64,000 bases of DNA from Haliovirga abyssi (GTDB lineage: Bacteria; Fusobacteriota; Fusobacteriia; Fusobacteriales; Haliovirgaceae). The notes below the pieces were generated by a model. That model did no database searches and was not told the DNA's origin. It saw only the letters and a list, made by a program, of their open reading frames with translations. Positions 32,113 to 51,333 of this stretch are shown here, one piece after another (the first letter of the stretch is position 1; every line of letters begins with the position of its first letter). The stretch spans positions 186,001-250,000 of the forward strand of contig NZ_AP027059.1 of assembly GCF_030295325.1 (NCBI RefSeq), written 5' to 3'. The translations under genes were made by a program, and so were the position numbers.

Positions 32113-32502
32113 ATGAAATTTTTAGTTGTGGAGGATGATTTTGTTAGTAGAAATTTATTAGTAAGGTATTTAAGAAAATATGGAGAATCTGATGTAGCGG
32201 TTAATGGTAGAGAAGGGCTTGATATATATAAGCTTGAAGTTGAAGAAAAAAGGAGTTACGATCTAATTTTTTTAGATATAATGACTCCTGAGATGGATGG
32301 AATGGAATTTTTAGAAGAGATAAGAAAATTTGAAAAAGAAAAAGGGATACTTGGAATGAATGGAGCAAAGATTGTTATGACAACAGCATTAGGCGATATG
32401 GATCATGTGAAAAAAGCATTTAGGTATCAGGTAGAAAGTTACCTGATAAAACCAATTGAAGTATCGAAAATTGAAGAAATTATAAAAGGAATAACAGAAT
32501 AG
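32113..32502 (+). CDS. Stand-alone response regulator receiver
   Basis: The 129-residue protein is a single receiver domain. The acidic pocket is E7-D8-D9 and the phospho-acceptor is D55 in LIFLDIMTPEMDG. The switch threonine lies in MTTALG and the conserved lysine in YLIKPI. It has no output domain. It has a GAGGGGG site and lies 11 bases before the PAS/HD-GYP gene, so it may pass signals to that enzyme or act as a phosphate sink. Confidence 0.93.
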   Translation: MKFLVVEDDFVSRNLLVRYLRKYGESDVAVNGREGLDIYKLEVEEKRSYDLIFLDIMTPEMDGMEFLEEIRKFEKEKGILGMNGAKIVMTTALGDMDHVKKAFRYQVESYLIKPIEVSKIEEIIKGITE

Positions 32503-32513
32503 GAGAAGAAAAT

Positions 32514-33851
32514 ATGAAAAATTATTTTGATGATATAGAAGATAAAAATGAAGTTCAAAAATATTTAATAGGTACAATTGAGAATAATTTTGAAATTGTG
32601 ATTATAACTAATAATGATGGGGTGATTAGTTATATTAGTAAAAGCGGGGAAAACTATACAGGATATGAGTTAATAGATATAGAAGAAAAATCTATTTTTG
32701 ATTTTATAAAAGGCAAAACTATACGAGATAAATTTTTGAAAAAGAGTTTAAATAAAACAAGTGTTGAATTCAAATTAAAAAAAAGAGGTATAAGAAATTT
32801 TAAAATTACAATTTATAAAATAGAGACTAATAAATATATATGGTATTTTACAGATATAACTATGGAAGTAAAAAAAATAGAAACAATTTTAGAAAGTTTA
32901 TCATTGAGAAATATAATATATAATATTATGGAAGAATTTATTTTTAGTTTTCAAATATTAGTGGGAGATAAACTAACATCTCTTTACGAAGTAAACAGTT
33001 CATTAGAAAAAGTATTAGGATACAATAGAGAAGAATTATATAAAAAGAAAGTTGTTGATATAATAAAATGTGACTTTAATAAGATGATATCTAAATTATA
33101 TAGTGAAAAACAATTCACAGAAGAAACTTTATTAATCAAAAGTAATGGAGATGAGTTACCTATAAAGGCGAAGTTTATATTATTAGAAGGTTATGAACCC
33201 AAAACAGTTGTTGTAATCGCACGAGATATCTCTGTAGAGAAAGAAGTTAAGAGTTTATTATTAGAAAATATAAAAAACAATGACATAATGGTTGATAATA
33301 TAGTAGAAACAATGTCGAAAATCGTAGAAAAAAGGGACCCTTATACTGTTGGACATCAAAAATCTGTTTCAGAAATATCTGTGAAAATAGGAAAAGAGAT
33401 GGGATTTTCAAAAGATAGATTAAGAGGATTGGAAATAGCTGGAATTTTGCATGATTTAGGAAAAGTAGCTATTCCAATAGAAATATTAACTAAACCAGGA
33501 AAACTAATGGAAGAGGAATTTAACTTGATAAAAAAACATTCTGAAATTGGATATGATATATTAAAAGATATAAAATTTCCTTGGGAAATAGCAGAGTTTG
33601 TATTACAACATCATGAAAGAATTAATGGAAGTGGATACCCTTTAGGGTTAAAAGGAGATAATATTTCATTAGAAAGTAAAATATTAGCAGTAGCAGATGT
33701 GATTGATGCTATGGCATCTCATAGGCCGTATAGAGCAGCTTTAGGATTAAAATCTGCTATGGAAGAAATAGAGGGGAAAAAGGGAATTTTATATGATGAG
33801 AGAGTTGTGAATTCTGCAATAAAAGTTTTGGGAAAAGGGGAAAAATTATGA
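32514..33851 (+). CDS. PAS-domain HD-GYP cyclic-di-GMP phosphodiesterase
   Basis: Two PAS-like sensor domains occupy about residues 20-120 and 135-245 (VISYISKSGENYTGYELIDI, and SLEKVLGYNREELYKKKVVD). A full HD-GYP domain follows at about 255-440 with H313-D314 in LHDLGK, HHERINGSGYP giving G374-Y375-P376, and ADVIDAMASHRPYR. HD-GYP enzymes hydrolyse cyclic di-GMP. No membrane segment is seen, so it is cytoplasmic. The stop overlaps the next receiver gene by four bases. Receivers on both sides suggest control by phosphorylation. Confidence 0.92.
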   Translation: MKNYFDDIEDKNEVQKYLIGTIENNFEIVIITNNDGVISYISKSGENYTGYELIDIEEKSIFDFIKGKTIRDKFLKKSLNKTSVEFKLKKRGIRNFKITIYKIETNKYIWYFTDITMEVKKIETILESLSLRNIIYNIMEEFIFSFQILVGDKLTSLYEVNSSLEKVLGYNREELYKKKVVDIIKCDFNKMISKLYSEKQFTEETLLIKSNGDELPIKAKFILLEGYEPKTVVVIARDISVEKEVKSLLLENIKNNDIMVDNIVETMSKIVEKRDPYTVGHQKSVSEISVKIGKEMGFSKDRLRGLEIAGILHDLGKVAIPIEILTKPGKLMEEEFNLIKKHSEIGYDILKDIKFPWEIAEFVLQHHERINGSGYPLGLKGDNISLESKILAVADVIDAMASHRPYRAALGLKSAMEEIEGKKGILYDERVVNSAIKVLGKGEKL

Positions 33852-34240
33852 AAAAAATATTAGTTGTAGATGATGATTATTTAAGTAAAAATCTTTTGAG
33901 TAGAATATTTAAAGGAAGTTTTATAGTCGAAGGAGCTTCAAATGGAAAAGAAGCTATTGAGAAATTTAGAAGAGAAAATTATGATATTGTATTTTTAGAT
34001 ATAATGATGCCGTTGATGACAGGGATGGAGGTTCTTAAAAAAATTAGAGAATATGAAAAAGAAAAAAAAGTAATTGAATCAGAGAAATCAGTAATAATAA
34101 TAGTGACAGCATTAGGCGAAATAGAAAACATAGAAACAGCATATGAAATGGGATGTGATTTGTATTTGAAAAAACCAATTACAATAAAAAATTTAAGAGA
34201 AAAATTAGGAGAATTAGGGATTGAGTTAAAAAAAATATAG
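33848..34240 (+). CDS. Stand-alone response regulator receiver
   Basis: The 130-residue single receiver has the acidic triad D8-D9-D10 and phospho-acceptor D51 in IVFLDIMMPLMTGM. It contains VTALGE and the lysine in YLKKPI. It resembles the receiver at 32113 more than CheY. It overlaps the HD-GYP gene by ATGA and is therefore translationally coupled to it. Confidence 0.92.
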   Translation: MKKILVVDDDYLSKNLLSRIFKGSFIVEGASNGKEAIEKFRRENYDIVFLDIMMPLMTGMEVLKKIREYEKEKKVIESEKSVIIIVTALGEIENIETAYEMGCDLYLKKPITIKNLREKLGELGIELKKI

Positions 34241-34252
34241 GAGGATATAAAT

Positions 34253-34654: not shown

Positions 34655-34693
34655 AATGTGTTATGACACTAAAATTTAGAAAGAATAAAATTA

Positions 34694-34990: not shown

Positions 34991-35066
34991 GAACAAATAT
35001 CCATATACATAATTTAATATGGTGTTAAAAAATAATTTAATTATAATAGGGAGGAGAGGAATTTAT

Positions 35067-35546
35067 ATGGCTGTAAATTTAGAATATATTAATCCATTTT
35101 TAAGTTCAGTTATAAATGTTATGAATGAAATGATTGATGAAAAACCTATAAAAAGTGAAGTTAAAATGCAAAAAACTAATTTTAAATCAGAAGGGATATC
35201 TACTATTGTAGGGATTACTGAAGGCGGGAAAGGGAATATAATAATTGATATGAAACAAGAAACTGCAATAAAAATAGCAGAAATAGTAAATGAAGAAGAG
35301 TATGGCAAATTAACAGATTTTGTATTTATAACATTAGCTGAGATAGGCAATATGATAGCTGGAAATGGGATAACTGTGATTAATAATAAAAATTCAAAAT
35401 TAAATTTAAGATTAACTCCTCCAAGTATATTCGCAGGAGATGATTTAGAGATTGATTCCCCAAAATTATCATCAATAGGAGTTAAGTTTAAATTGAGTTT
35501 TGGAGAAATTTCTTTAAATGTTGCATTTGAAGGGGTGGAGGTGTAA
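35067..35546 (+). CDS. cheX: CheX-type chemotaxis phosphatase, paralogue 1
   Basis: The 159-residue product matches CheX, a CheC/CheX/FliY-family phosphatase of CheY-P. The active-site pair is E92 and N95 in LAEIGNMIAGNG. It starts VNLEYINPFLSSVINVM, the usual CheX opening. I use the ATG at 35067 with its GGGAGGAGAGG site rather than an upstream in-frame ATG at 35019 that lacks one. A second, divergent CheX follows two bases after its stop. Confidence 0.88.
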   Translation: MAVNLEYINPFLSSVINVMNEMIDEKPIKSEVKMQKTNFKSEGISTIVGITEGGKGNIIIDMKQETAIKIAEIVNEEEYGKLTDFVFITLAEIGNMIAGNGITVINNKNSKLNLRLTPPSIFAGDDLEIDSPKLSSIGVKFKLSFGEISLNVAFEGVEV

Positions 35547-35548
35547 TT

Positions 35549-36097: not shown

Positions 36098-37573
36098 ATG
36101 GATAATTTAATGAATTTCTTTGAAGAAAATTATGAGGCAATTATTGTTATGGATAAAACAGGTATTGTAGAGAATATAAATAAAGTTGGATTAAAACAAA
36201 TAGGATATAATAAAGAAGATATAATAGGACATCATCTTTCAAAATTCAGTAAAAATTATTCTGAAGAATTATATAATAAAATGTTGAGAAAAGTTATAAA
36301 AAATAAAAGATATAATGATATATTTTATTTCAGAGAAAAATCAGGGAAAGAAATTATTTGGGATTCGCATCTATATCTTTGGAGAAATTCAGGAGATGAA
36401 AAAATAGTAAAAGTGGCTAAAAATATTTCTAAAAAATTAAAATTAGAAGAGTGTTTGAGAGAATCGCACGAAAGATTTTTTCAAGCTTTTGAAAAATCAC
36501 CAATAGGAATAGTATTAATTTCTGAAGATATGAAAATAATAGAAGAAAATGAAAGTTTTAAAAATATATTAGAGATTAGTGATAATAGATATTTAAAAAG
36601 AAATTTTAAAAAAAATATATATGTAGATGATATAGAAAAAATAGAAAACGGTTTAAAAGAATCAAAGAAGTATGAAAATACAAAAAAAATAGATATTAGG
36701 ATAGTTACACAAAAAAGAAATTTAAGAGATATATCTTTAACCATAAGTTATACAAAACAAGTAGAAATAGAAAAAGAATTTTTTATTTTGCAACTAGAGG
36801 ATATTACAAATGAAAAAATTACAAATGAAAAATTAAAATTATTGATAAAAGAATCTCAATCTTTAAATAAAATAAAAGATAGTTTATTAAGTAATATTTC
36901 GCATGAATTTAGAACTCCATTAAATAGGATTTCAATAGCATTAGATTTATTAATTGAAGAGATAGGCAAAGGTACAGCAGAAAATGATTTGATACAAATA
37001 ATAAAAAAATCTATGAATAATATTTTGGAATATTTGGAAAATATAATTTTAATGAGTAAGATAGTTTCTAAAAGTTTAACATATAATCTTGAAAAGTTTC
37101 AAACAAAAGAGATAATTGATGGAATTTTAGATATAAAAGAAAAAAACATAGGAAATAAAAATGTGAAATTTGAAATTAATGATAAAAAATTAGGAGACAA
37201 AATTATTTGGGGAGATAAAGAAAAAATATTAAAGATAGTTTCAGAAATAGTTAAAAATAGTATAATATTTACTCAAATTGGATATATAAAAATAAATTTG
37301 GGAATAGTTGAAAATATGTTAGAAATTAAAGTAAAAGATACAGGAATAGGGATTCCAGAAGATATAAAAGAAAGAATGTTTAATATATTAGAACAAGGAG
37401 ATATGAGTTATAAAAAAAGTCATAGTGGGATAGGCATAGGTCTATCTATAACCAAAACATATGTTGAAGGATTAGGTGGAACAATAGATTTTATTACTGA
37501 AGTTGGAAAAGGTACAGAATTTAAAGTAATGATTCCTATAGAAATTATTAAAGTAGGCAAAATAGATATATAA
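36098..37573 (+). CDS. Cytoplasmic PAS-PAS sensor histidine kinase
   Basis: Two PAS domains cover about residues 5-115 and 125-245. The HisKA dimerisation domain has phospho-acceptor H269 in SHEFRTPLNR. The HATPase domain shows N-box IVKNSIIF, G1 DTGIGIP and G2 GIGIGLSI. The 491-residue protein has no membrane segment and no attached receiver. It could phosphorylate the stand-alone HPt protein 24 bases downstream only through a receiver, or it may act on one of the four receivers in the cluster. Confidence 0.93.
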   Translation: MDNLMNFFEENYEAIIVMDKTGIVENINKVGLKQIGYNKEDIIGHHLSKFSKNYSEELYNKMLRKVIKNKRYNDIFYFREKSGKEIIWDSHLYLWRNSGDEKIVKVAKNISKKLKLEECLRESHERFFQAFEKSPIGIVLISEDMKIIEENESFKNILEISDNRYLKRNFKKNIYVDDIEKIENGLKESKKYENTKKIDIRIVTQKRNLRDISLTISYTKQVEIEKEFFILQLEDITNEKITNEKLKLLIKESQSLNKIKDSLLSNISHEFRTPLNRISIALDLLIEEIGKGTAENDLIQIIKKSMNNILEYLENIILMSKIVSKSLTYNLEKFQTKEIIDGILDIKEKNIGNKNVKFEINDKKLGDKIIWGDKEKILKIVSEIVKNSIIFTQIGYIKINLGIVENMLEIKVKDTGIGIPEDIKERMFNILEQGDMSYKKSHSGIGIGLSITKTYVEGLGGTIDFITEVGKGTEFKVMIPIEIIKVGKIDI

Positions 37574-37597: not shown

Positions 37598-38761
37598 ATG
37601 GATATGAATATGTTTATGGATGAGTTTGTAAGTGATATAAGTGAAATATTAGAAAATTTAGAATTAGATACTATTGAATTAGAAAAAAATGGAAAAGATA
37701 AAGAGATATTAAATAGAATATTTCGTAGTTTTCATTCATTAAAAGGGATGTGTGGAACTATGGGATTTCATAAAATGGAGTCGACATCTCATCTTGTAGA
37801 AGATTTAATTCAAGATATTAGAGAAGATAAAATAGAATCAAATCAAGAAATAATTGATGTTATACTTTATGATAGAGATATAATAGAGAAATTATATAAA
37901 TCAATTATGGAAACTGGCAAAGAAAAAGAGATAGAGACAGAGACAGAAGAATTAAAATTGAAATTAGATAAAATAAGAGGGATTAATGATGACAAAAAAG
38001 ATGATAAAAAAAGCAGGGATATGGCTACAAATAGAGTGAAAATAAGGTTTATAGGAGATTCGTATAAAAAAGATATGATATCTTCTGCCTTGAAAATGGG
38101 ATTGAAATTACATGAAATGACAATTAAATTAAATAAAAATTCAGATATGCCTTTGGTAAGAGGGTTTATGGTATATTCATCTATATTGAAAGAGGCAAGA
38201 ATAATATATTCTAACCCTAGTTATGAGAGTTTATTAGAAGGTGAGGAGGTAGAGGAGACATTTGACTTTAAAGTTATATTTACTACAAACAAAAAAATAA
38301 TAGATTTAAAAAATAGGGTAAGAAAACTTGTAGATGTAGAGTCGATAAAAGTTTCGGAAGTTATTGAATATGGCAAAACTATAAAAGATAAATATTTGAT
38401 TAATGAAGAATGGGAATCGGGAAGTTTTAAGCCATTTACTCTTGAAGAGATAGTTGAGATGACAGATGAATTTGATTACGAATATGAAGAAAATTTAATA
38501 AAAGAATTAAAAATAAAAATTAGTAGTAGTGATGATAAAAAAACAGATTTAATGTTTATGCAGGAGATATATTCACGATTGCATCAAATAGAAAATATTT
38601 TTAAAATTTACAAAATAAAATTACTTGCAGACATATTTAAAGATTTAAAAATAAAGTTTGATAATAATATAAAAAATGAAAAAATAACAGAAAATATAAA
38701 AAAATTAATTATTTCTGGTTGTGAATTTTCTGAGCTTTACTTAGAAACGATTGGAAAATAG
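37598..38761 (+). CDS. Stand-alone HPt-domain protein (CheA P1-like)
   Basis: Residues 1-110 form an HPt bundle with phospho-acceptor H46 in FHSLKGMCGTMGF, as in the P1 domain of CheA. Residues about 145-235 resemble a CheA P2-like alpha/beta domain (VKIRFIGDSYKKDMISSALKMG). A charged C-terminal region follows. There is no kinase domain or CheW-like domain in the 387 residues. It may relay phosphate between the cluster's kinases and receivers. It sits between the PAS kinase and the HEAT protein. Confidence 0.85.
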   Translation: MDMNMFMDEFVSDISEILENLELDTIELEKNGKDKEILNRIFRSFHSLKGMCGTMGFHKMESTSHLVEDLIQDIREDKIESNQEIIDVILYDRDIIEKLYKSIMETGKEKEIETETEELKLKLDKIRGINDDKKDDKKSRDMATNRVKIRFIGDSYKKDMISSALKMGLKLHEMTIKLNKNSDMPLVRGFMVYSSILKEARIIYSNPSYESLLEGEEVEETFDFKVIFTTNKKIIDLKNRVRKLVDVESIKVSEVIEYGKTIKDKYLINEEWESGSFKPFTLEEIVEMTDEFDYEYEENLIKELKIKISSSDDKKTDLMFMQEIYSRLHQIENIFKIYKIKLLADIFKDLKIKFDNNIKNEKITENIKKLIISGCEFSELYLETIGK

Positions 38762-38785: not shown

Positions 38786-39862
38786 ATGAAAGAATTACTA
38801 GAAAAGTTAGAAAATGGGAAAACAGAAGAAAAGCTAGATATAATAGAAGAAATTTTTGAAAAAAGAAATTTTGAAAATTATTTAGTTGAAATTGTAGATT
38901 ATTTGGAAAAGTCTAAAGAAGGGATAGTTAGAGAAAAGATAGTAAATTATTTGAAAAAATATAATAATCCTAAAATTGTGGATAAATTATTAAAATTTTA
39001 TGAAAGTAATGATATTTTTTTGAGAAATGTGGCGGTAGATATAATCTCTCAATTCTATGAATTGCCATTTGCTAATCTTACAAAAATGTTAAATCATGAG
39101 AATAAGCATGTAAGGAAGTTAGCATTAGATACATTATATAACACACATAATCCAATGGTAGCTGGATTTATATCAACAGCTCTTTATGATGACGAAGATA
39201 TAAATAATGTGATTACTGCAGTGGAATATTTAGGAAAGTTAAAAGCATATAAATATGCTGATGATATAGCAGAACTTTTAAAGGATGCAGAAGCTCCATT
39301 TTTAATTATAACAATTTTGGGGACATTATCTTTAATTGGTAATAAATATTCATATATGAAAGTAAAAGATATATATCCAGATATAGAAAAAGTAGATGCT
39401 CTATTTTTAGCACCATTATTGAAGTTTTATAAAAAATTTAATGGTGGAGAATTAATAGAAGAGATTTTAAAATTAAAATCAAAATACTCATTATTATATA
39501 AAGAAGTTATAGATATTGTAAAAGATTTTATTGATAATGGAAAACCGGAAGAGATAGATGAAAAAGGGGAGGATATTTATAATTTATTAAAAGAACTACT
39601 AGAAGAAAAAATACCAGAGGCTAATAAATATGAGGTTATTCATATATTAGCTCTTTTTGAAGGAGAAGAGGTAGAATATATTTTAGTTGAAAGCTTACAT
39701 AATGGTAGTGATATATTAAAAATTGGTGCTACAGAAGAACTTTTAAAAATAGATTTTAATAAATATAAAGATGAAATAAAAAAAGTGATAGAAGATGAAA
39801 AAGATGAAAATACAAAAGAGAATTTAATAATTCTGTTAGAAGGTGATAATAATGAAGCTTAG
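38786..39862 (+). CDS. HEAT-repeat scaffold protein
   Basis: The 358-residue protein is almost all alpha-helical, with repeated two-helix units such as NPKIVDKLLKFYESNDIFLR, NHENKHVRKLALDTLYNTHN and EVEYILVESLHNGSDILKI. No catalytic motif is seen. Such repeats mediate protein-protein contact, so it may act as a scaffold or adaptor for the neighbouring signalling proteins. It overlaps cheR by 11 bases. Confidence 0.8.
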   Translation: MKELLEKLENGKTEEKLDIIEEIFEKRNFENYLVEIVDYLEKSKEGIVREKIVNYLKKYNNPKIVDKLLKFYESNDIFLRNVAVDIISQFYELPFANLTKMLNHENKHVRKLALDTLYNTHNPMVAGFISTALYDDEDINNVITAVEYLGKLKAYKYADDIAELLKDAEAPFLIITILGTLSLIGNKYSYMKVKDIYPDIEKVDALFLAPLLKFYKKFNGGELIEEILKLKSKYSLLYKEVIDIVKDFIDNGKPEEIDEKGEDIYNLLKELLEEKIPEANKYEVIHILALFEGEEVEYILVESLHNGSDILKIGATEELLKIDFNKYKDEIKKVIEDEKDENTKENLIILLEGDNNEA

Positions 39863-41127: not shown

Positions 41128-43632
41128 ATGATGAAAAAATTTGATGAGGAAAATATAGAAATATTAGTTGATGTACTGGAAGAAATAGATATATATAAAG
41201 AAACAATAGAACGCTCTATATTGAAATTTGAAAAAGAGAGTAATAATGAGATAGTAGATGAACTTTTTAGAGCATATCATAGTATTAAAGGGATAGTAGG
41301 ATTTGCAAATTTGGACTCTATAGCAACTATTGCTTCTTTTACAGAAAAAATATTAAAAACTCTAAAAGATAAAAATGAGAATATAGAGAATAAAGATGAG
41401 ATAGTATCGCTTTTATTAGATTCAATAGATTTATTAAAAGAGATAGAAATGAAAATAAATGAAGCGTTGAGCAGTAAAGGAGATAAAAAAGAGATATCAA
41501 TAGATATAGTAGATATAGGAGAAGAAGAATTTAAAAAAAGAGTGTTGGATATTATTGGAGAAAAAGAGGAGAAATCAGAATTAGTTTTTGATAATTTAAA
41601 TTATGAATATGAAGATAAAATTATAAGCCAAAGTTTTGAAAAATATACTTATGAATTTGGAGATAATTTGAAAATTGCAGAAGAAAGTTTATTGAATTTA
41701 GAAAATAAATTTTCTGAAGAGGAAATTAATGTTTTAATGAGAGCATTCCATAGTATAAAAGGAGGAGCAGGCTTATTATTAATATTACAGACTAACGAAA
41801 ATACAAAAAAAATATTTAAATTAATAGAAAAAGTGGCTCATTCTTTAGAGGATTTAGTACAAGTAGCAGAATATGAAAACGATTCTAAAGATTTTGATTC
41901 TTTTTATAAAGGTATTGATATTTTAAAAGGTATATATCGATCTCTTTCTTCAAAAGAAAAAACTATAAAAATAAATAATGATTATTTAGAAAAAGTGAAT
42001 CGTGTATCTAAAGAAGAAAATAAAAAACAAAACGAAGATAAGCAAGAGGAAGATAAACAGGAAGAAAAAGATAAAAAAAAGATTGCAAAAATTAAAACAT
42101 TGAAAAATTTTAATAATCAATTTATTGAATATTTGAAAAAAAATGTTATTGAGAAAGAGGAGTATAATGTAGGAAAATCCAAAAGAATAAGTAAGGGATT
42201 AAGAGGAAGTTTGAAAAATTTAAAGTTTAATGAAAAACTAGATTTTATAAATGATATTATAAACAGTATAGAAAATGAAGAGATGCAAGAAATAAAAGAT
42301 AAGCTGGAAGAGCTAAAAAAATGGGATTTTGAAGTTGAAAAACCATTAAAAAATAAATCTCAAAATGAAGAAGCAGAAAAAAAGAATATAAATATTAAAT
42401 CAAATGGTAAAGGTGATAATGAAACCACTTTGAAAAAAGTAGCTACAAATAGATCGATAAGACTTAGTAAAGATAAAGTTGATAAAATGGTAAATTTGGT
42501 TAGTGAATTGCTTACTTTAAAAAATCAGCAGGCTAATTTGACAAAGGATGTATCAGGATATAAAGAAATCTCTGGAAAAATGAAAAAAGTATATGGAAAT
42601 TTTGAGAGACTTACATTAGAATTTCAAAATATAGTAATGTCTATGAGAATGGTAGGGATAGAAAATTTATTTAATAGATATAGAAGGACAGTAAGAGACA
42701 GTGCAAAAGCTTTAGGAAAAGAGGTAGAACTTATTATAGAAGGTGGAGAAACAGCAATAGATGAAGATATTATGGAATTGCTATCAGATCCACTTACTCA
42801 TATGGTAAGAAACTCTGTAGATCACGGATTAGGAATGCCAGAAGAAAGAGAAGAAAATGGAAAAACCAGAACTGGTCATGTAACGTTAAGAGCATACAAT
42901 AAAGGTGGCTTTATTTTTATTGAAGTAGAAGATGATGGAAGAGGATTAAATCACAATAAAATATTACAAAAAGCTGGGGAAAAAGAACTTATAAATGATA
43001 TTGATATAGAAAAATTAACACCAGAAGATATATATCAATTTATATTTTTACCAGGATTTAGTACATCAGAAAAAGTTACAAATTTATCTGGACGTGGAGT
43101 AGGGATGGATGTTGTGAAAACGAATATCACATCTTTAGGAGGAAGGATCATTATAAATTCTAAAGAAGGAGAAGGGACAAAATTTATATTAAAAATTCCT
43201 TTATCATTATCAATAATAAAAGGACTAATGGTGAAATTAGATAAAGGTAAATATATTTTACCTTTAGAAAATATAAGGGAAAATATAAAACTAAAAAAAT
43301 CAAATATTAGAAGATATAAAAATTCATATTTAGCAGTAATTAGAGATGAGCCTATTCCGTTAATTGACATAAAATTTTTAACAGGAAAGAGTTTAGGTGA
43401 AATTATAAATAAAGAATATTTTTATGATTTAATTCCAATAGTAGTTTTAGATATAGATGGAGAAAATTATGGAATAGTAGCAGATGGGTTTATAGAAGAA
43501 AATGAATATATGGTAAAACCTATACCTGATTTTTTGAAAGGGAATAATCTGTTTTCTGGTACAACAATATTAGGAGATGGCTCTTTAGTTTTGATATTAA
43601 ATCCAACAACGACTGTAACATTAAAGGAGTGA
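41128..43632 (+). CDS. cheA: CheA histidine kinase with two N-terminal HPt domains
   Basis: The 834-residue kinase has a first HPt domain with H51 (AYHSIKGIVGF) and a second with H208 (AFHSIKGGAGL). A long charged linker of about 160 residues follows, then the P3 dimerisation helices, the P4 ATPase (LTHMVRNSVDHGLGMPEER, DDGRGL, GRGVGMDVV) and a P5 CheW-like domain to the end. No clear P2 domain lies between them. Both histidines are intact, so either could be phosphorylated. It is flanked by a receiver and a ParA-type ATPase. Confidence 0.95.
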   Translation: MMKKFDEENIEILVDVLEEIDIYKETIERSILKFEKESNNEIVDELFRAYHSIKGIVGFANLDSIATIASFTEKILKTLKDKNENIENKDEIVSLLLDSIDLLKEIEMKINEALSSKGDKKEISIDIVDIGEEEFKKRVLDIIGEKEEKSELVFDNLNYEYEDKIISQSFEKYTYEFGDNLKIAEESLLNLENKFSEEEINVLMRAFHSIKGGAGLLLILQTNENTKKIFKLIEKVAHSLEDLVQVAEYENDSKDFDSFYKGIDILKGIYRSLSSKEKTIKINNDYLEKVNRVSKEENKKQNEDKQEEDKQEEKDKKKIAKIKTLKNFNNQFIEYLKKNVIEKEEYNVGKSKRISKGLRGSLKNLKFNEKLDFINDIINSIENEEMQEIKDKLEELKKWDFEVEKPLKNKSQNEEAEKKNINIKSNGKGDNETTLKKVATNRSIRLSKDKVDKMVNLVSELLTLKNQQANLTKDVSGYKEISGKMKKVYGNFERLTLEFQNIVMSMRMVGIENLFNRYRRTVRDSAKALGKEVELIIEGGETAIDEDIMELLSDPLTHMVRNSVDHGLGMPEEREENGKTRTGHVTLRAYNKGGFIFIEVEDDGRGLNHNKILQKAGEKELINDIDIEKLTPEDIYQFIFLPGFSTSEKVTNLSGRGVGMDVVKTNITSLGGRIIINSKEGEGTKFILKIPLSLSIIKGLMVKLDKGKYILPLENIRENIKLKKSNIRRYKNSYLAVIRDEPIPLIDIKFLTGKSLGEIINKEYFYDLIPIVVLDIDGENYGIVADGFIEENEYMVKPIPDFLKGNNLFSGTTILGDGSLVLILNPTTTVTLKE

Positions 43633-43636
43633 AGCT

Positions 43637-44428
43637 ATGAAAGAGATAATAGTTTTTTCTAATAGAAAAGGAGGCACAGGCAAATCTTCTTCTGTTTATA
43701 ATTTAGGATATTTTTTATCTGAAAAAAATAAAGTTTTATTAATAGACTTTGATTCACAAGGGCATTTAGGAGTTTGGGCAGGATTAAAACAATCAAAAGT
43801 AAAAGAAAAAAATATATATATAAGTTTAGTAAAATTCATAAAAAATAAAACTATTGATAAAGATGATGTTTTTAAAATAAAAGAAAATTTATATATATTA
43901 CCATCAAATCAAGATTTGTCAGCATTGGATATGGAACTTATGAATGTAGAAAATAATAAAACTGTTCTAAAAGATTTTATTATAGAGATAGAAGAAGATT
44001 ATGATTATATAATCATAGATACAGAACCAGCTTTTGGAATGACAGCTTTAAATGGATATGTAGCAGCTACACAATTAATAATTCCAATAAAAACAGACTA
44101 TTTATCAATGATAGGTGTTTCTCAATTAATGAGTCTGTATTATAAAGTAAAAAGTACAATGAACCCATCAATTGAATTTGTAGGAATTCTACCAACATTT
44201 TATAATAAAAGGACAAATTTAGCTAAAAATTTAATGAAAGAATTAATTGAAACTTTTGGAAAAGATAAAATTTTTTCACCAATAAGAAAAGATATAAAAT
44301 TATCAGAAGCACCATATTATGGAAAATCTATATTTGAGTTTGCAAAAAAATCTCATGGAGAACAGGATTATAGAAAATTTGGAGAAGAGTATCTGAAAAA
44401 AGCAGGTGAAAAAAATGGAATTAGGTAA
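43637..44428 (+). CDS. ParA/MinD-type ATPase of the chemosensory cluster
   Basis: The 263-residue protein has the deviant Walker A motif KGGTGKS with lysines K11 and K16, LLIDFDSQGHLG as the A' motif, and IIIDTEPAFG as Walker B. It belongs to the ParA family. In other bacteria ParA homologues inside chemotaxis operons (ParC in Vibrio, PpfA in Rhodobacter) position chemosensory arrays. There is no parB or parS evident here. The next gene encodes a small partner with a ParB-like N-terminal motif, overlapping it by 14 bases. Confidence 0.9.
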   Translation: MKEIIVFSNRKGGTGKSSSVYNLGYFLSEKNKVLLIDFDSQGHLGVWAGLKQSKVKEKNIYISLVKFIKNKTIDKDDVFKIKENLYILPSNQDLSALDMELMNVENNKTVLKDFIIEIEEDYDYIIIDTEPAFGMTALNGYVAATQLIIPIKTDYLSMIGVSQLMSLYYKVKSTMNPSIEFVGILPTFYNKRTNLAKNLMKELIETFGKDKIFSPIRKDIKLSEAPYYGKSIFEFAKKSHGEQDYRKFGEEYLKKAGEKNGIR

Positions 44429-44732
44429 AGGATTAAAACTATTTTTTGGTGAAATGGAAGAAAATTCAGAAGATGTAGAAGATATAAATAACTATTTTGA
44501 AAAAGCGAAAAAAGAAAAAAACCCTTTGATTTCGTTTGCTTATTATTTTCAAGTTATTTTAAAAAGTGAAGATGAAAAGTTAAAATCAAAAGCTTATAAT
44601 AATTTGGCTATAATATTATATCAAGAAGAATATGAAAAAAAAGCAATAGAATATCTAAAAAAAGCAATAGAATGTGACAACGAAAATATTAATGCAAAAG
44701 AGAATTTAGAGGAGATAGATAGCAATAGATGA
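44415..44732 (+). CDS. Small TPR protein with ParB-like N-terminal LGKGL motif
   Basis: From the ATG at 44415 (AGGTGA five bases upstream) this is 105 residues. It begins MELGKGLKLFFGE, closely like the N-terminal peptide by which ParB proteins stimulate ParA (LGKGLxxLF). The body has one clear TPR unit, KAYNNLAIILYQEEYEKKAIEYLKKAIECDNENINAKENLEEI, preceded by another weaker helical pair. I infer that it binds the ParA-type ATPase through the tip and another cluster protein through the TPR. I know of no named family with this combination. Confidence 0.75.
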   Translation: MELGKGLKLFFGEMEENSEDVEDINNYFEKAKKEKNPLISFAYYFQVILKSEDEKLKSKAYNNLAIILYQEEYEKKAIEYLKKAIECDNENINAKENLEEIDSNR

Positions 44733-44742
44733 GTCTAATTCA

Positions 44743-44971
44743 TTCAGCACAAAGATATAAAGTTCTCTAAGATACGATAGTGTAAAGTTTTTGTAAAGAA
44801 AATAATTTCAGCACAAAGACGCGAAGTACGCAAAGGTACACTAAGAAAACATTGATACTTTACCAGATTAAAGCGTATCTAATTTTTTTATTATATATTG
44901 GTAAAAATGGATTCTACCCATATATAAGTTTTTCTTTGTGATACTTTGTGTTCTCCTTTCTTTGTGCTGAA
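44743..44971. repeat. CACAAAGA-type inverted repeat with a nested half of the palindromic element
   Basis: It fills most of the 358-base gap 44733-45090. TTCAGCACAAAGA occurs at 44743-44755 and 44807-44819, and inverted as TCTTTGTGCTGAA at 44959-44971. The flanking sequence is also imperfectly palindromic. Between them, 44850-44890 matches the right half of the 184-290 element (TTTACCAGAT, AAGCGTA, T run). A TATAAT at 45043-45048 could be the -10 of the next gene, but no -35 is convincing. Confidence 0.7.
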
Positions 44972-45090
44972 TCTTTGTTTTTTAAATGGTTTGACTTAAA
45001 GAAACGATTATTAGCTTGATGCCATTAAGAATCAAAGAAGATTATAATACAAATAGATTAAGTATTTCGTGAAAAGGAGGGGAAGAAAAA

Positions 45091-46560
45091 TTGATTGGAA
45101 TTGATTTAGGAACAGTTAATTCATTAGTAGCCTACATTGGAGAAGACAATAAACCTAAAATTATATCCACTGAAAGAGGAGAAAAATTTACTCCTTCAGT
45201 AGTTTATTTCAAAAATTCTTTAGAAGTATTAATTGGAGAATTAGCAAAAAGTCAAATGTACCTTTATCCAGAGCGAACAATTAGATTTGTAAAAAGAGAT
45301 ATAGGAAAAGAGATAGATTATACGATATTTGATAGAAAATTTAACCCAGCAGAAATTTCAGCTCTGATATTAAGAAAATTAATGAAAATATCAGATGAGT
45401 ATTTTGGCAAAAAAAAAGAAGCTATAATAACAGTACCTGCATATTTTGATGATAATCAAAGATTTTATACTATAAATGCAGCAAAATTAGCAGGAATAGA
45501 AAAAGTGCATTTGTTAAATGAACCTGATGCTGCAGCAATTGCATATGGTATTTTTAATGATAATACAAATTTAATGGTTTTGGATATAGGTGGTGGAACT
45601 TTTGATATATCTCTTATGAATATCAAAGATGGAGTTTTTAAAGTTATAGGAAACGGAGGCGATACCAATTTTGGCGGACTGGATTTTGATAATGCAATTT
45701 CTGATTATATATTAAAAACAGTGCAGGAAACTCAAAATATAGATTTGTCAAAAGACCCAATTGCAATGCAGCAGATATTAATACATTCAGAAAAAGCAAA
45801 GTTGGATTTGAGCACAGTGGATGAAACAAATATTATGATACCGTATATATCACAAAATGATAATGGGCCTATTCACATAAATATAACAATTACAAAAGAT
45901 ATATTTTATAAATTAACAGAAAATCTTTTTAAAAAATTTGAAAAATTAATAGAAGAAACTTTATTAGAAAACAAGATAGAAGATAACTGGCTAAATAAAA
46001 TTATTTTTGTAGGAGGAACTTCACGTATAAAGAAATTTAAAGATATAATAAAAAATAAATTTCCAACAGTTGAAATAAAACAAGATATAAATCCTGAAGA
46101 TGTTGTAGCAGAAGGAGCAGCAATAAAAGCTGGAATTTTATCAGGAAAATTAAAAGATGTAGAGTTTAAAGATATATTATCCCATTCATATGGAATAATA
46201 AATGATGAAGGAGAATTTGTAGAAATTTTAAACAAAGGCAGAGAATATCCAACAGTGGAATCAAAACTATTTACAAATAGTTTTGATGAGCAAGATGAAA
46301 TAATTTTAGAAATAAGACAAAAAATAGCAGAAGAGATAATAAGTTTAGGTAGCTTTAAATTTAAATCTACAAAAAAATGGAAAAAAAATGAATCTAATAT
46401 TGAAGTTGTTTTTAATGTTGATATTAATGGAGTTTTAAATGTTACAGCAATAGATATAGATACTCATCAAAGTGAAGAGCTAATAATAGAAAATGCTTTG
46501 TATGGGAACAGAGAAAACGAAACACAGGTAAGAAGAGGAAAAGAGATAATAGTAAAATAA
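45091..46560 (+). CDS. Shortened Hsp70/DnaK-family protein in the chemosensory cluster
   Basis: The ATPase half is complete: GIDLGTVNSLVA near the start, VPAYFDDNQR, LNEPDAAAIAYG, LDIGGGTFDISLM and IFVGGTSRIKKFKDII. A short substrate-binding beta domain follows (to about 489 residues), but the helical lid of DnaK (normally to about 600-640 residues) and the acidic C-terminal tail are absent. No dnaJ or grpE is nearby. The start is TTG at 45091 with AAGGAGGGG. Its place between the ParA pair and the receptor suggests a client-specific role in the array. Confidence 0.9.
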   Translation: MIGIDLGTVNSLVAYIGEDNKPKIISTERGEKFTPSVVYFKNSLEVLIGELAKSQMYLYPERTIRFVKRDIGKEIDYTIFDRKFNPAEISALILRKLMKISDEYFGKKKEAIITVPAYFDDNQRFYTINAAKLAGIEKVHLLNEPDAAAIAYGIFNDNTNLMVLDIGGGTFDISLMNIKDGVFKVIGNGGDTNFGGLDFDNAISDYILKTVQETQNIDLSKDPIAMQQILIHSEKAKLDLSTVDETNIMIPYISQNDNGPIHINITITKDIFYKLTENLFKKFEKLIEETLLENKIEDNWLNKIIFVGGTSRIKKFKDIIKNKFPTVEIKQDINPEDVVAEGAAIKAGILSGKLKDVEFKDILSHSYGIINDEGEFVEILNKGREYPTVESKLFTNSFDEQDEIILEIRQKIAEEIISLGSFKFKSTKKWKKNESNIEVVFNVDINGVLNVTAIDIDTHQSEELIIENALYGNRENETQVRRGKEIIVK

Positions 46561-46581
46561 AAAGCGGAGGTGTAGTTTAAA

Positions 46582-48537
46582 ATGGTAAGAAAAATGGAAA
46601 GTCCAGAGGATTATAGTGAAAAAAAATATGTTACAACAGGAATTACAACAAAACAAACAAATGGAGACGATTCTTTAAAAAAACGAGAAACAGCAAAAAA
46701 ACTAGCGATTCAAAGAGCAAAAGCTAGAACAATGGCAAAGAGACAAGCCATGGCAGAAAAAATAGGGGCTGCAACTGCAGAGCTTGCAGCAAACGTGGAA
46801 CAAGTTTCAGAAAACGGAGAAAATTTAGCTAATGCAGTAGAAAAAATAGCAGCGGCATCTCATCAAGCGGCATCAGCAACACAAGAAGCGATAGGTTCAT
46901 CTAAAATGATAAATGAAAATGTAAAAGCATCTACAAAGGATATGATGGATTTAAACGAAACTATTAATGAGAATGAAAAAATGGTTCAAACTATGGTAGT
47001 AAGTGTAGGAGAATTAATTGAAAATATAAAAGATATAGTTGAAAAAAACAATGTATCGGTAAAAATGATACAAGAATTAGAAGATAAATCAAACAAAATA
47101 GGAGATATAGTTAAAACGGTGGTAATGATATCAGACCAGACAAATTTATTAGCATTAAATGCAGCAATAGAAGCAGCGAGAGCAGGAGAACATGGGACTG
47201 GATTTGCAGTTGTAGCTGATGAGGTTAGAAATTTAGCGGAAGTTTCTGAAAAATCAGCAAATACTATTAGAGACGTGGTTGATGAAATGAAAGTAGATAT
47301 TGATGGTATAGTAAAAGATATTAATGAAATAATAAATGATTCTAATAAACAAACTGAAAAAGGAGGAATTGTAACAGAAGCGTTAAGAAAATTTAGAGAA
47401 GATTTTGTTGAAATAATTAACAAAACAGAAGAAAATATAGGATTATTTAACGAAATTGATAAAATGTCAGAAAGAATAGTGAGCGAGTCAGAAACGGTAG
47501 CAGCTGCTACAGAACAAATGAGTGCGGCAACTTTAGAATCTGCAAAAGCAAATGAAGAGCAAGCAAAAGCTCTTGAAGAGATATCTATAGCTACAAGAGA
47601 ACTTATGGAGATAGCAGAAGAGTTAAAAACGTCTACAGATTCGGAAAAATCTGCTGAAATAGTAGCTTCTGCAGCAGAACAGCTTTCTTCTAATATAGAA
47701 GAAGTTACAGCAACATCTCATCAAATAATGAGTGGATTAGAACAGGTGTCAAAAGGAACGGAAGTAGTCGCTGCAGGTGCAGAGTTAGGGAAAAAAATTG
47801 TAATAGAAATTGAAGAAAAAATGAATATATTTCAAGAAAATATAAAAAAGGATTATGAAAATATAGAAAATGTAAAAAAAGAATTAAAAAATAATACAGG
47901 AATAATAAAAGAGATAGCTGTTGGGTTAGATGGTTCAGATAACTTGTTTCAAGAATTATCAGACAATATTTTGAATTTACAAGAAAAAGGATTTAATATA
48001 AACAAAACTGTAAACAAAATTGATAAAGTTACAATTCAAACAAATATGCTTGCAGTAAATGGTTTTGTGGAAGCGGCTCATGCAGGAGATTATGGAAAAG
48101 GTTTTAATGTAGTTTCAAATGATATAAGGAATTTGGCAAATGATTCAGGAGAAAATGCAGATCAAATTCAGGAATTAGTAGAAGGAATACAACGACAAAT
48201 TGGAAAAACAAGTGTAAATATAGCAGAGTCAACAAAATATACAGCAATAGGTGTGAAAGAATCGCATGGAACTCAAAAAATATTGACTGATATGGGAGAA
48301 AATATAGAAAGCTTAATAGGTGTATACAAAAATGTTTTGAATAATATGGAGATTATAAATAATGCTTTAGAAGAAGAAAAAACTGGAATAGTACAAATTG
48401 CATTGGCAGCTAAAGATTCAAATGAAGCTGTAAAAGCTGTAATGGAAGATGCAAAAAAACAATTTAAAACAATGGAAGAAATATCAATGGCGATAGAAGA
48501 TATTGCTACAATTGCCGATGAATTACAAACTGAATAA
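46582..48537 (+). CDS. Soluble methyl-accepting chemoreceptor with two signalling tips
   Basis: No membrane segment or periplasmic domain exists in the 651 residues. A basic N-terminal region ([20 protein letters not shown]) leads into helical coiled coil. A first, canonical MCP tip lies at about 184-220 ([20 protein letters not shown], then [13 protein letters not shown]). A second, divergent tip lies at about 484-520 ([20 protein letters not shown], then [13 protein letters not shown]). The two are 300 residues apart, so the gene looks internally duplicated. It is probably the receptor for this CheA, but its input is unknown. Confidence 0.9.
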
Positions 48538-48550
48538 GGGGGCTCGGAAG

Positions 48551-50074
48551 ATGAAAACAACTAAAGAAGGACAAAGTATTGTTTTTGAAATAAAAGATGA
48601 GAATTACGCAGTCCCTCTTATTTATGTAAAAGAGATAATAAGAGTTCCAGAAATAACAGAGCTTCCAATGTCTGAGGAATCTTTAAAAGGGATAATAAAT
48701 TTAAGGGGGATTATAGTTCCGGTTATATCAATAAGAGAAAAATTTGGAATTGAAAAAAGCATTGAAAATAAGGAACAAGAAAGAATAGTTATTTTAGAAA
48801 AAGAGGGTACTCAATTTGGAGTAACTGTAGATAAAATGAGAGGTGTAATTAATGTAAATGAAAATGAAATTGAAGAGAATGATGGAAATTTTGAAAGTGA
48901 ATTTATAAAAAATGTTATAAAAAAAGATAAAGAAATTTATATGGAACTAAATTTAGAAAAATTAATTGAAATAAAAACATTTGGAAACAGTGCAAATGGA
49001 AATTTAGGTAATTCAAACAAAAGTACAGAAAACAGACAAAATATTTTAGAGGTAAGAGAAAAATTTGTAACATTTAAAATAGGTGAAAATGACTATGGTT
49101 TTAATATTGAAGATGTAAAAGAGATAATAAGATATATAAAACCAAGGGAAGTGCCAGCAGAATCAGAATATATGCTAGGAGTAATAAAATTAAGAGAAGA
49201 AATTTTACCAATTTCAGATTTAAGAATAAAGTTGGGAGCAGAAAAAACAGAAGTAGATGAATTTACGAAAGTAGTAGTAATTGAAAGTAAAAATCATAAA
49301 ATAGGGTATGTGGTAGATAGAATAGAAGAGGTAATTAATATTGAAAAAGATAAAATATTGCCACCGCCGTTATATTTGAAAACACAAGGGAATGATGAAA
49401 TAAAATCAATAATAAAAGATAAAAATGAAAATATAACAATAATATTGGATATAGAAAAATTAATGGCAGATGTTTCGGAAAATTTAGACAAACTATCTGA
49501 AACGAAAAACTCTATTAAAGAAAATGAATCTAATATAAAAAAAGATGAAGATGTGCAATTTATAATATTTGAATTAGAAAAAACGCTTTATGGGATAGAA
49601 ATTGAAGACGTTAGAGAAATAAATAGGCTATCAAATATTACAAAAATTCCTAAAGCTCCTGAATTTGTAGAAGGAATAATAAATTTAAGAGGAGATGTTA
49701 TTGCAGTAGTAGATTTGAGGAAAAGATTTAGTTTAAACAAAAAAGAGATAGGAGAATTTACAAGAATAATAATATCAGAAGTAAAAGGAGTAAGTATAGG
49801 ATTTATAGTTGATTATGTAAAATATGTGTCAAAAGTTAATAGAAATGAAATTTTACCAGTTGAAACCCTTGGATTTGTTAATAATGACTTTTTAAAAGGC
49901 GTTTACAAAAACAAAGATAATAATAGCATGGTTTTAATATTAAATTTTGAAAATGTTATGACAGAAAAAGAGGTTAAAGATTTAGGGAAAATAGGTTCTA
50001 AACCGGTAACTAAAAAGAGAGAAACTAAGAAAAAAGTGCCTAAAAAGAAAAAAACTTTAAAAATTAATGAATGA
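48551..50074 (+). CDS. Coupling protein with three CheW domains
   Basis: Three successive CheW folds each begin with the family strand pattern: FEIKDENYAVPLIYVKEIIR (about 10), FKIGENDYGFNIEDVKEIIR (about 178) and FELEKTLYGIEIEDVREINR (about 338). Each also has the GIINLRG or GVIKLRE motif. The 507-residue protein ends in a lysine-rich tail (TKKRETKKKVPKKKKTLK). I use ATG 48551; a start at 48503 would overlap the receptor gene and lacks a ribosome site. A single CheW is about 150 residues, so this is a linear triple. Confidence 0.92.
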   Translation: MKTTKEGQSIVFEIKDENYAVPLIYVKEIIRVPEITELPMSEESLKGIINLRGIIVPVISIREKFGIEKSIENKEQERIVILEKEGTQFGVTVDKMRGVINVNENEIEENDGNFESEFIKNVIKKDKEIYMELNLEKLIEIKTFGNSANGNLGNSNKSTENRQNILEVREKFVTFKIGENDYGFNIEDVKEIIRYIKPREVPAESEYMLGVIKLREEILPISDLRIKLGAEKTEVDEFTKVVVIESKNHKIGYVVDRIEEVINIEKDKILPPPLYLKTQGNDEIKSIIKDKNENITIILDIEKLMADVSENLDKLSETKNSIKENESNIKKDEDVQFIIFELEKTLYGIEIEDVREINRLSNITKIPKAPEFVEGIINLRGDVIAVVDLRKRFSLNKKEIGEFTRIIISEVKGVSIGFIVDYVKYVSKVNRNEILPVETLGFVNNDFLKGVYKNKDNNSMVLILNFENVMTEKEVKDLGKIGSKPVTKKRETKKKVPKKKKTLKINE

Positions 50075-50107
50075 TAATATGTAATAGTATAATTTGTAAG
50101 GGAGCCC

Positions 50108-50191
50108 CCCCTGTCATCAAGATAAGAACTGGGCTTGCCAACGGCAAGCCCCTACAGTATTAATTCATTTTATAATGTAGGGGCTTTATTT
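50108..50191 (+). promoter_or_regulatory. Two mutually exclusive hairpins between the triple-CheW gene and cheB
   Basis: GGGCTTGCC (50131-50139) pairs with GGCAAGCCC (50143-50151). Alternatively AAGCCCCTACA (50146-50156) pairs perfectly with TGTAGGGGCTT (50176-50186), followed by TATTT. The shared AAGCCC segment makes them exclusive, as in an attenuator. TGTCATCAAGATAAG at 50112 is shared with the 34694 element, so a dispersed repeat is an equally good reading. Confidence 0.4.
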
Positions 50192-50238
50192 ATAACGCCA
50201 AAATAAAAAAAATTAAACCAAAAAAGAGGTGTAAACTA

Positions 50239-51333
50239 ATGAACGAAATAAGGGTTATAGTCGCTGATGATTCTGCATTAATGAGAAGGACTTTAAAAAA
50301 AATTATAGAAATGGATAGTCGACTAGTTGTTATTGAAACAGCAAGAGATGGAGAGGATGCAGTAAATAAAGTAAAAGAATTAAAACCAGATGTTGTAACA
50401 ATGGATATAAATATGCCTAAGATGGATGGACTTACCGCATTACAAATAATAATCGAAGAAGATATATGCCCTATAGTTGTAGTTTCATCCTTGTCACAAA
50501 GAGGAGCACTAACAACATATGAAGCATTAGAGCTAGGAGCATTTGCCTGTGTAGGGAAGCCTGGAGGGACTGTTAGTACAAATATGGCTGATGTTCAAAA
50601 AGAACTATGTGATGTTCTTTATGAAGCAGCTTTAATTGGACATAATGGAGAAAAGCTAAAAAGATTATCTAATAAGATGAAAACTATAAAAAAAATTAGA
50701 AAAGAAGAAGAAGTTTTATTAAATGAAATAGAAGTAAAAGTAAAAAAAGGGGGAATATTAAAAGCTGTAGCACTAGGAATATCAACTGGAGGGCCTAAAA
50801 ATATTTATGATGTATTACCTTTATTACCTAAAAACTTAAATGCAGCTATATTTGTGGTTCAACATATGCCGCCTAATTTTACAGAATCTTATGCTAAAAG
50901 ATTAAATAAATATTGTGATATGGAAGTTGTAGAGGCTAAAAATGGAATGCTAGTAGAAAGAGGAGTTATATATATAGGAAAAGGTGGTTATCATATTAGG
51001 ACTAGAAAAAATTTTAATAATGATTTAGTAATTAGACTTTCTAGAGTTCCAAAACATATGTTTATGCCATCTGTTGGAATTATGATGGAATCAATCTTAG
51101 ATAGTTTTGGTGAAAATACGTTAGGTGTACTTATGACTGGAATGGGAGATGACGGCGCTAACGGAATGGTAAAAATAAAACAAGCAGGAGGTTATACAAT
51201 AGCAGAAGCAGAAGAAACGTGTATTGTATTTGGAATGCCACAAGAAGCTATAAAAAGAGGTGGTGCAGATATAGTATTACCATCATATAAAATTGCAAAA
51301 GAGATAATAAATAAAGTGGGATTATATAAGTGA
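50239..51333 (+). CDS. cheB: Chemoreceptor methylesterase CheB
   Basis: CheB removes receptor methyl groups when phosphorylated. The N-terminal receiver has D10-D11 and phospho-acceptor D56 in VVTMDINMPKMDG. The C-terminal esterase has the catalytic serine S182 in GISTGGP, the histidine in VVQHMPPNF and the aspartate in MTGMGDDGANG. The length of 364 is normal. It follows the triple-CheW gene after a 164-base gap with hairpins, and a tRNA operon promoter starts 45 bases after its stop. Confidence 0.96.
   Translation: MNEIRVIVADDSALMRRTLKKIIEMDSRLVVIETARDGEDAVNKVKELKPDVVTMDINMPKMDGLTALQIIIEEDICPIVVVSSLSQRGALTTYEALELGAFACVGKPGGTVSTNMADVQKELCDVLYEAALIGHNGEKLKRLSNKMKTIKKIRKEEEVLLNEIEVKVKKGGILKAVALGISTGGPKNIYDVLPLLPKNLNAAIFVVQHMPPNFTESYAKRLNKYCDMEVVEAKNGMLVERGVIYIGKGGYHIRTRKNFNNDLVIRLSRVPKHMFMPSVGIMMESILDSFGENTLGVLMTGMGDDGANGMVKIKQAGGYTIAEAEETCIVFGMPQEAIKRGGADIVLPSYKIAKEIINKVGLYK

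What the first reader, a model, noticed from the sequence alone, without database searches (positions are those of the whole stretch)
32113..51333. Self-contained cytoplasmic chemosensory supercluster with unusual parts
About nineteen kilobases on one strand encode receptor, CheA, triple CheW, CheR, CheB, two CheX, four receivers, a PAS kinase, a stand-alone HPt, a c-di-GMP phosphodiesterase, a HEAT protein, a ParA pair and an Hsp70. No flagellar or pilus gene and no membrane receptor is present. The set looks like one soluble array with its own adaptation, positioning and chaperone parts, rather than standard flagellar chemotaxis. The output is unknown; c-di-GMP is one candidate. I know of no described system with this exact set.
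Basis: partly seen in the sequence, partly recalled or inferred. Interest (0 to 1): 0.85.

Follow-up and report, generated by a model that had tools for sequence, protein, structure and literature searches.

The report
Soluble chemosensory array with dedicated chaperone
This is a bacterial signalling array that floats in the cytoplasm, of a known class (F9, the DosM arrays of the cholera bacterium), but it carries its own chaperone and positioning proteins, an add-on conserved in several distant bacterial groups that I found nowhere described.

Summary
The gene list is right: 18 same-strand genes (32113-51333). The system is not unknown. The two-tip soluble receptor and the three-domain CheW are the published signatures of F9 chemosensory systems (DosM + CheW3; PMC9321776, PMC7534058), which form two-layered cytoplasmic arrays in Vibrio cholerae. 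Receptor next to CheW3 occurs in 85 of 88 compared loci, and the tip-to-tip distance is 300 residues in the window and 57 of 59 measurable relatives. The new element is a block between CheA and receptor: ParA, a TPR protein with a ParB-like LGKGL peptide, and a lidless Hsp70. This Hsp70 is a clade of its own (100/100), apart from both other Hsp70s of the genome; it sits in F9 clusters of five other lineages (Bacillota, Thermotogota, Atribacterota, Synergistota, Myxococcota), always with ParA-TPR. The block is optional: absent from a cluster in the same order and from most Proteobacteria. The genome has a separate flagellar che locus; 47 of 49 carrier genomes have flagella. Best explanation: an F9 array placed on the nucleoid by ParA-TPR, assembled or remodelled by its own Hsp70, reporting an internal state to motility and perhaps c-di-GMP. 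Class and synteny are shown; positioning, chaperone role and output are inferred.

The parts
32113..32502 (+). Stand-alone receiver (RR1), phospho-acceptor residues intact by inspection
   Evidence: PF00072 67 bits; alignment
32514..33851 (+). PAS-PAS-HD-GYP, predicted c-di-GMP phosphodiesterase (HHE...GSGYP present)
   Evidence: HD_5 1.5e-39, PAS_9; 38% full-length homologue directly upstream of HEAT in the G069 cluster
33848..34240 (+). Stand-alone receiver (RR2)
   Evidence: PF00072 86.6 bits
34253..34654 (+). CheY3: CheY with N-terminal extension; 47-50% to the CheY next to CheX in Bacillota F9 clusters, 44% to the flagellar-locus CheY of the same genome
34655..35018 (.). Intergenic gap holding a ~210-bp inverted-repeat (MITE-like) element, ends TGTCATCAAGCTAAG
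35019..35546 (+). CheX1, CheY-P phosphatase (E..N motif present)
   Evidence: PF13690 54 bits
35549..36016 (+). CheX2, CheY-P phosphatase
   Evidence: PF13690 63 bits; NF041094 4.7e-33
36098..37573 (+). Soluble PAS-PAS histidine kinase
   Evidence: HisKA, HATPase_c, PAS
37598..38761 (+). HPt-P2 protein with a second HPt-like stretch (RLHQIEN) near the C-terminus: likely phosphotransfer shuttle for a CheA without P2
   Evidence: PF01627, PF07194; motif scan
38786..39862 (+). HEAT-repeat protein, conserved upstream neighbour of CheR in F9 clusters
   Evidence: PF13646 56 bits; HEAT-CheR-CheY in 61 of 88 loci
39843..40757 (+). CheR methyltransferase
   Evidence: PF01739 2.6e-54
40754..41125 (+). 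CheY4, F9 core receiver (53-56% to those of Bacillota and G069)
41128..43632 (+). CheA with two HPt domains (both with His), P3-P4-P5, no recognised P2
   Evidence: tree
43637..44428 (+). ParA-type ATPase (KGGTGKS deviant Walker A)
   Evidence: PF13614 1.2e-42; homologous to cluster ParAs elsewhere
44406..44732 (+). Small TPR protein with N-terminal ELGKGLKLFF peptide like the own chromosomal ParB (RLGKGLNALI)
44733..45090 (.). Intergenic gap with repeated/inverted TTCAGCACAAAGA motifs
45091..46560 (+). Lidless Hsp70 (ATPase domain + SBD-beta + short RRGKEIIVK tail), distinct clade
   Evidence: PF00012 414 bits
46582..48537 (+). DosM-type receptor: soluble, two signalling tips 300 residues apart, basic N-terminal tail
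   Evidence: PF00015 x2
48503..50074 (+). CheW3: three CheW domains in one chain
   Evidence: PF01584, 3 stretches, 324 bits
50239..51333 (+). CheB methylesterase with receiver
   Evidence: PF01339 2.9e-59, PF00072

Best explanation
This is a full F9-class chemosensory system with a ParA-TPR-Hsp70 block. Shown: gene content, F9 signatures, synteny, and the tip-to-tip ruler. Inferred: DosM-type rods span two CheA/CheW3 baseplates to make a two-layered cytoplasmic sheet. The receptor has no sensor domain and is the only MCP of the genome without a predicted membrane helix, so it probably reads an internal state through its mid-rod, HEAT or PAS partners. CheR and CheB adapt it. CheA and the HPt-P2 shuttle pass phosphate to the receivers; CheX1/2 reset CheY3. 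ParA rides on the nucleoid and is stimulated by the ParB-like peptide of the TPR protein, which ties the array to ParA so that it is positioned and shared at division. The lidless Hsp70 assembles or remodels the array. Output most likely reaches motility through the flagellar-CheY-like CheY3, with c-di-GMP turnover by the HD-GYP protein as a second branch.
For: F9 signatures: published definition; double MCP and CheW3 here; 85 of 88 loci have receptor next to CheW3; tip spacing 300 residues in the window and 57 of 59 measurable relatives; modelled helix 29-650 with its one break at 351-353, midway between the tips. The Azospirillum B510 locus, a species listed as having F9, has the same core order. 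ParA-TPR-Hsp70-MCP order in seven other loci, five of them directly behind CheA. Hsp70 clade 100/100 with catalytic residues kept, lid absent, changed linker and J-contact position. LGxGL peptide in most TPR homologues and in the own ParB. R. sphaeroides precedent: PpfA (ParA) segregates a cytoplasmic array. Flagella in 47/49 carriers and in both carriers of the order, where 5 of 96 genomes are flagellated (Fisher p 0.002).
Against: No array was seen and no interaction tested. F9 CheA deletion in V. cholerae has no detectable phenotype, so a motility output is not established; in R. sphaeroides a cytoplasmic array of another type does control the motor. Flagella could co-occur simply because che genes generally do. 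DosM arrays in V. cholerae need a second soluble receptor, and this genome appears to have none. In most other F9 loci Hsp70 and TPR are absent, so they are not needed for array formation in general. One TPR homologue (L077) has lost the LGxGL peptide.
Confidence: 0.6

Rival explanations
1. An ordinary F9 system in which the Hsp70-ParA-TPR genes are passengers with unrelated functions (general chaperone, plasmid-like partition remnant).
For: The block is absent from the same-order cluster G069 and from most F9 loci.
Against: Same block in seven other loci from five lineages; a monophyletic Hsp70 family separate from both other Hsp70s of the genome; TPR and Hsp70 altered in shared ways; cluster Hsp70 never seen without ParA-TPR.
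Confidence: 0.12
2. The array's output is not motility: an F9 system controlling c-di-GMP, transcription or stress physiology through the PAS-HD-GYP, PAS kinase and receivers.
For: V. cholerae F9 cheA mutants show no detectable phenotype and the arrays form under low oxygen or stress. A full-length PAS-HD-GYP homologue is directly upstream of HEAT in G069; HD-GYP genes also lie beside L076 and L141.
Against: 47/49 carriers flagellated (97% in PMC9321776); CheY3 is the receiver nearest to the flagellar CheY; HD-GYP genes detected in only 5 of 88 loci.
Confidence: 0.35
3. The system is a hybrid: membrane receptors elsewhere use this CheA, or the DosM/CheW3 sheet feeds the flagellar CheA.
For: Partial F9 sets that probably borrow another CheA are described; the genome has 15 other MCPs, three other CheA proteins and no CheR seen in its flagellar locus.
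Against: A full CheA, CheR and CheB are encoded in the cluster; most other receptors have different C-terminal arm lengths; two further CheR genes exist.
Confidence: 0.2

Closest known systems
F9 chemosensory class, Vibrio cholerae cluster I (DosM VC1403, CheW3 VC1402, CheA VC1397)
   Same: Soluble two-tip receptor, concatenated triple CheW, own CheA/CheR/CheB/CheY, no membrane receptor, coexists with another flagellar class
   Different: Here also Hsp70, ParA, LGKGL-TPR, two CheX, HPt-P2, PAS-HD-GYP and PAS kinase; the two gene blocks are in swapped order compared with the Proteobacteria seen here
F9-type clusters of Syntrophomonas, a Thermotogae MAG and Caldatribacterium (L129, L135, L147, L073, L074)
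   Same: Order CheA-ParA-TPR-Hsp70-MCPx2(-CheWx3); where the contig reaches far enough also HEAT-CheR-CheY upstream and CheB-CheY3-CheX downstream
   Different: No HPt-P2 or PAS-HD-GYP found beside the gene set; only L129 covers the whole region
Rhodobacter sphaeroides cytoplasmic cluster (TlpT/PpfA)
   Same: ParA homologue positions a soluble array on the chromosome; ParB-like stimulation
   Different: Single-tip TlpT carries the ParA contact itself; CheA3/CheA4 split; no Hsp70 named in the passages read
Myxococcus xanthus Frz (FrzCD)
   Same: Soluble receptor with basic N-terminal tail; the FrzCD tail binds DNA
   Different: FrzCD is described as a standard-length cytoplasmic receptor, not a DosM/CheW3 system; direct DNA binding not tested for the present receptor
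DnaK (Hsp70)
   Same: Catalytic residues and SBD-beta, 343 bits to a truncated DnaK in the PDB
   Different: No lid, altered interdomain linker and J-contact position, conserved C-terminal tail, separate clade

Membership tests
F9 chemosensory class | Receptor with two signalling domains in tandem (DosM) | tested here: met
   Two MCPsignal matches, no membrane helix, spacing 300 aa
F9 chemosensory class | Concatenated triple CheW (CheW3) | tested here: met
   Three CheW matches in one 523-aa chain
F9 chemosensory class | cheA, cheY, cheR and cheB in the same cluster (full rather than partial F9) | tested here: met
F9 chemosensory class | CheA groups with F9 CheA | tested here: inconclusive
   Quick tree puts it nearest CheAs of Thermotogae and Syntrophomonas F9-type clusters, away from the own flagellar CheA (99), but long branches from other systems intrude; no V. 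cholerae sequence or F9 class model available
F9 chemosensory class | Two-layered cytoplasmic array | not testable with these tools
   Needs cryo-electron tomography
F9 chemosensory class | Coexistence with another F class and flagella (typical, 97%) | tested here: met
Canonical DnaK | C-terminal helical lid | tested here: not met
   Chain ends at 489 aa after SBD-beta
Canonical DnaK | Groups with DnaK | tested here: not met
   Separate clade 100/100
Hsp70 superfamily | Catalytic residues of the ATPase domain | tested here: met
   Lys, Glu and Thr equivalent to DnaK K70, E171, T199 present (numbering from general knowledge)
ParA/ParB-type positioning | Deviant Walker A ATPase | tested here: met
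   NRKGGTGKS, PF13614
ParA/ParB-type positioning | Partner with ParB-like N-terminal peptide | tested here: met
   Sequence only: LGKGL as in the own ParB; stimulation of ParA not tested

The most novel reading that the evidence does not exclude
A dedicated, lidless Hsp70 family works with a ParA and a ParB-peptide TPR adaptor as an ATP-driven assembly, remodelling and partition machine for cytoplasmic chemosensory sheets: a chaperone specialised for a signalling array.
Probability: 0.4. Interest if true: 0.72.

Novelty: new variant of a known kind. Interest (0 to 1): 0.5.

Why it matters
F9 cytoplasmic arrays are known by structure but their function is unknown, also in V. cholerae. This variant gives handles: an Hsp70 clade of its own, a ParA-TPR pair and, in one strain, separate genes for phosphotransfer, dephosphorylation and c-di-GMP. 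If the Hsp70 acts on the array, it would be a chaperone dedicated to building or taking apart a chemosensory lattice, and would make testable how soluble arrays are assembled, placed on the nucleoid and inherited. The held papers that describe F9 do not mention Hsp70 in the passages read; supplementary tables of gene order could not be read.

Tried and rejected
(1) HPt-P2 as a synteny probe: hits are the P1-P2 parts of other CheAs; abandoned. (2) Single-protein scan of viral contigs with the MCP: none. (3) Reading the cluster as unique: rejected after the plasmid and genome scans. (4) Reading it as flagellar chemotaxis proper: rejected, the flagellar che locus is elsewhere. (5) The small ORF between CheA and ParA in Proteobacteria as TPR counterpart: it is weakly STAS-like and only 15-26% identical; not taken as homologous. 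(6) The flank-ORF picker mis-called GC-rich loci; replaced by tblastn. (7) The CheA and MCP trees are quick trees with long branches; used only for broad placement. (8) V. cholerae DosM could not be fetched for a direct comparison; paper PMC5027440 is not held. (9) Paper searches for Hsp70/DnaK with chemosensory clusters gave only HtpG-CheA in E. coli.
Full report
Observation. The 19.2-kb stretch encodes 18 genes, all on the + strand and mostly overlapping or within 100 bp. Pfam and NCBIfam identify them as receiver, PAS-HD-GYP, receiver, CheY, CheX, CheX, PAS histidine kinase, HPt-P2, HEAT, CheR, CheY, CheA, ParA, TPR, Hsp70, double MCP, CheW x3 and CheB. The TPR protein is below Pfam's cut-off but its C-terminal helices are predicted with good confidence. 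Three larger gaps carry repeat sequences, one a MITE-like element whose end occurs 14 times in the genome. The finding's gene list is therefore correct, with small corrections given under the observation check.

Genome context. The genome (2.73 Mb, two contigs; organism not named by the tools) has a flagellar locus with CheY, CheB, CheA, CheW, CheC and CheD (CheC and CheD recognised from sequence), two more CheA loci, two further CheR genes, 16 MCP proteins, 15 of them with predicted membrane helices and only the cluster's receptor without, and two PilT proteins. The absence of motility genes inside the cluster is thus no sign of a non-motile cell.

What it is. tblastn against plasmids found that the double MCP and triple CheW lie side by side in Alpha- and Betaproteobacteria, followed by CheB, HEAT, CheR, CheY, CheA, a small weakly STAS-like protein and sometimes ParA. 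A scan of 84,980 species genomes with the second tip returned 80 loci from Pseudomonadota, Acidobacteriota, Actinomycetota, Bacillota, Thermotogota, Atribacterota, Synergistota and others. Receptor and CheW3 are neighbours in 85 of 88 loci compared and HEAT-CheR-CheY is kept in 61. The literature names exactly these two proteins as unique to class F9, DosM and CheW3, which in V. cholerae form two baseplates about 35 nm apart with receptors between them. Azospirillum sp. B510, a species listed with F9, has the same core order on a plasmid. I therefore file the system under F9; that its CheA clusters with F9 CheA is only weakly tested.

The ruler. The distance between the two tips is 300 residues in the window and in 57 of 59 measurable homologues (the other two 301), and the C-terminal arm is 165-168 residues. 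AlphaFold models the window receptor as helix from 29 to 650 with one break at 351-353, midway between the tips. By geometry the rod is about 45 nm from tip to tip if fully helical (inference, 1.5 A per residue) and both arms end near the middle, from which the basic N-terminal tail emerges. The relation to the 35 nm baseplate distance of V. cholerae is plausible but not computed.

The unusual block. In the window and in Syntrophomonas (L129, L147), Firmicutes HGW-15 (L135), a Thermotogae MAG (L073) and Caldatribacterium (L074) CheA is followed by ParA, TPR, Hsp70 and the receptor; in a Myxococcota MAG (L090) and a Synergistaceae MAG (L077) ParA-TPR-Hsp70 precedes the receptor but CheA lies elsewhere in the cluster. 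Three loci have ParA with a TPR protein but no Hsp70 (L095, L119, L130), and the cluster Hsp70 was never seen without ParA-TPR. A locus of the same order (G069) has PAS-HD-GYP, HEAT, CheR, CheY, CheA, receptor, CheW3 and CheB but no ParA, TPR or Hsp70, and a Syntrophomonadaceae locus (L107) also lacks the block. The block is conserved but optional; whether it was gained several times or lost cannot be told from the quick receptor tree, which needs at least five changes.

The Hsp70. Seven cluster Hsp70s form one side of a branch with 100/100 support against nine other Hsp70s from the same genomes, including two of the window's own genome. They keep the catalytic residues, end after SBD-beta at 489-513 residues, share a changed linker (VELxDV..H-type instead of VLLLDVTPL), replace the Arg that contacts J-proteins in DnaK (role from general knowledge) by Lys or His in all but one, and mostly end in an RRGxxLxVL-like tail. 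A dedicated chaperone that works without a lid and with altered J-protein contact is inferred; the client is not known. In E. coli, HtpG acts on CheA in a DnaJ-dependent way, a precedent for chaperone help in array assembly.

ParA and TPR. The TPR protein begins with LGKGL, as does the own chromosomal ParB (RLGKGLNALI), and the peptide recurs in most homologues but not in L077. In ParB this region stimulates ParA (general knowledge). PpfA in R. sphaeroides does a comparable job for a cytoplasmic array through TlpT. The positioning role is inferred.

Output. 47 of 49 carrier genomes have FlhA, in line with the published 97%; in the window's order 5 of 96 genomes are flagellated and both carriers are among them (Fisher p 0.002, not corrected for kinship). 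CheY3 is nearer to flagellar CheYs (44-50%) than the other receivers are, and is paired with CheX as in Syntrophomonas. On the other hand the V. cholerae F9 CheA deletion has no detectable phenotype. I give motility about 0.5 and c-di-GMP or other physiology about 0.35.

Verdict. The Hsp70-ParA-TPR block is, as far as the held papers show, undescribed, and is the part worth following.

Noticed in passing
L158 1032-9305 (G000:C1 about 986031-994304): A second chemosensory-type locus without CheA: receiver-DUF2225, two-domain KaiC-like ATPase, 824-aa protein with nine HEAT repeats, CheR, CheY and CheB in a row.
   Followed up: partly
window 34655-35018 and 50075-50238; genome-wide: MITE-like repeat with inverted ends TGTCATCAAGCTAAG; 14 exact ends in the genome, three pairs 195 bp apart, control zero.
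   Followed up: partly
window 44733-45090: A different repeat with inverted TTCAGCACAAAGA motifs in the gap before the Hsp70.
   Followed up: no
window 51430-52319: Nine tRNA genes directly downstream of the cluster; the - strand ORF 51406-51840 across them is spurious.
   Followed up: yes
window 31036-31953 (-): PD-(D/E)XK family transposase-type protein with a repetitive GIEQ tail next to the cluster.
   Followed up: no
L058 14986-19101 (G000:C1 834986-839101): Another CheA lies between two CheW genes and beside STAS- and anti-sigma-like proteins, away from the flagellar locus.
   Followed up: no
L095, L130: The only two carrier genomes without FlhA have a related variant: ParA, a 142-aa TPR protein without a clear LGKGL peptide, no Hsp70 and a 670-aa CheW3.
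   Followed up: partly
L102: A MAG labelled Klebsiella pneumoniae carries an F9 locus nearly identical to a betaproteobacterial one, probably a mislabelled bin.
   Followed up: no
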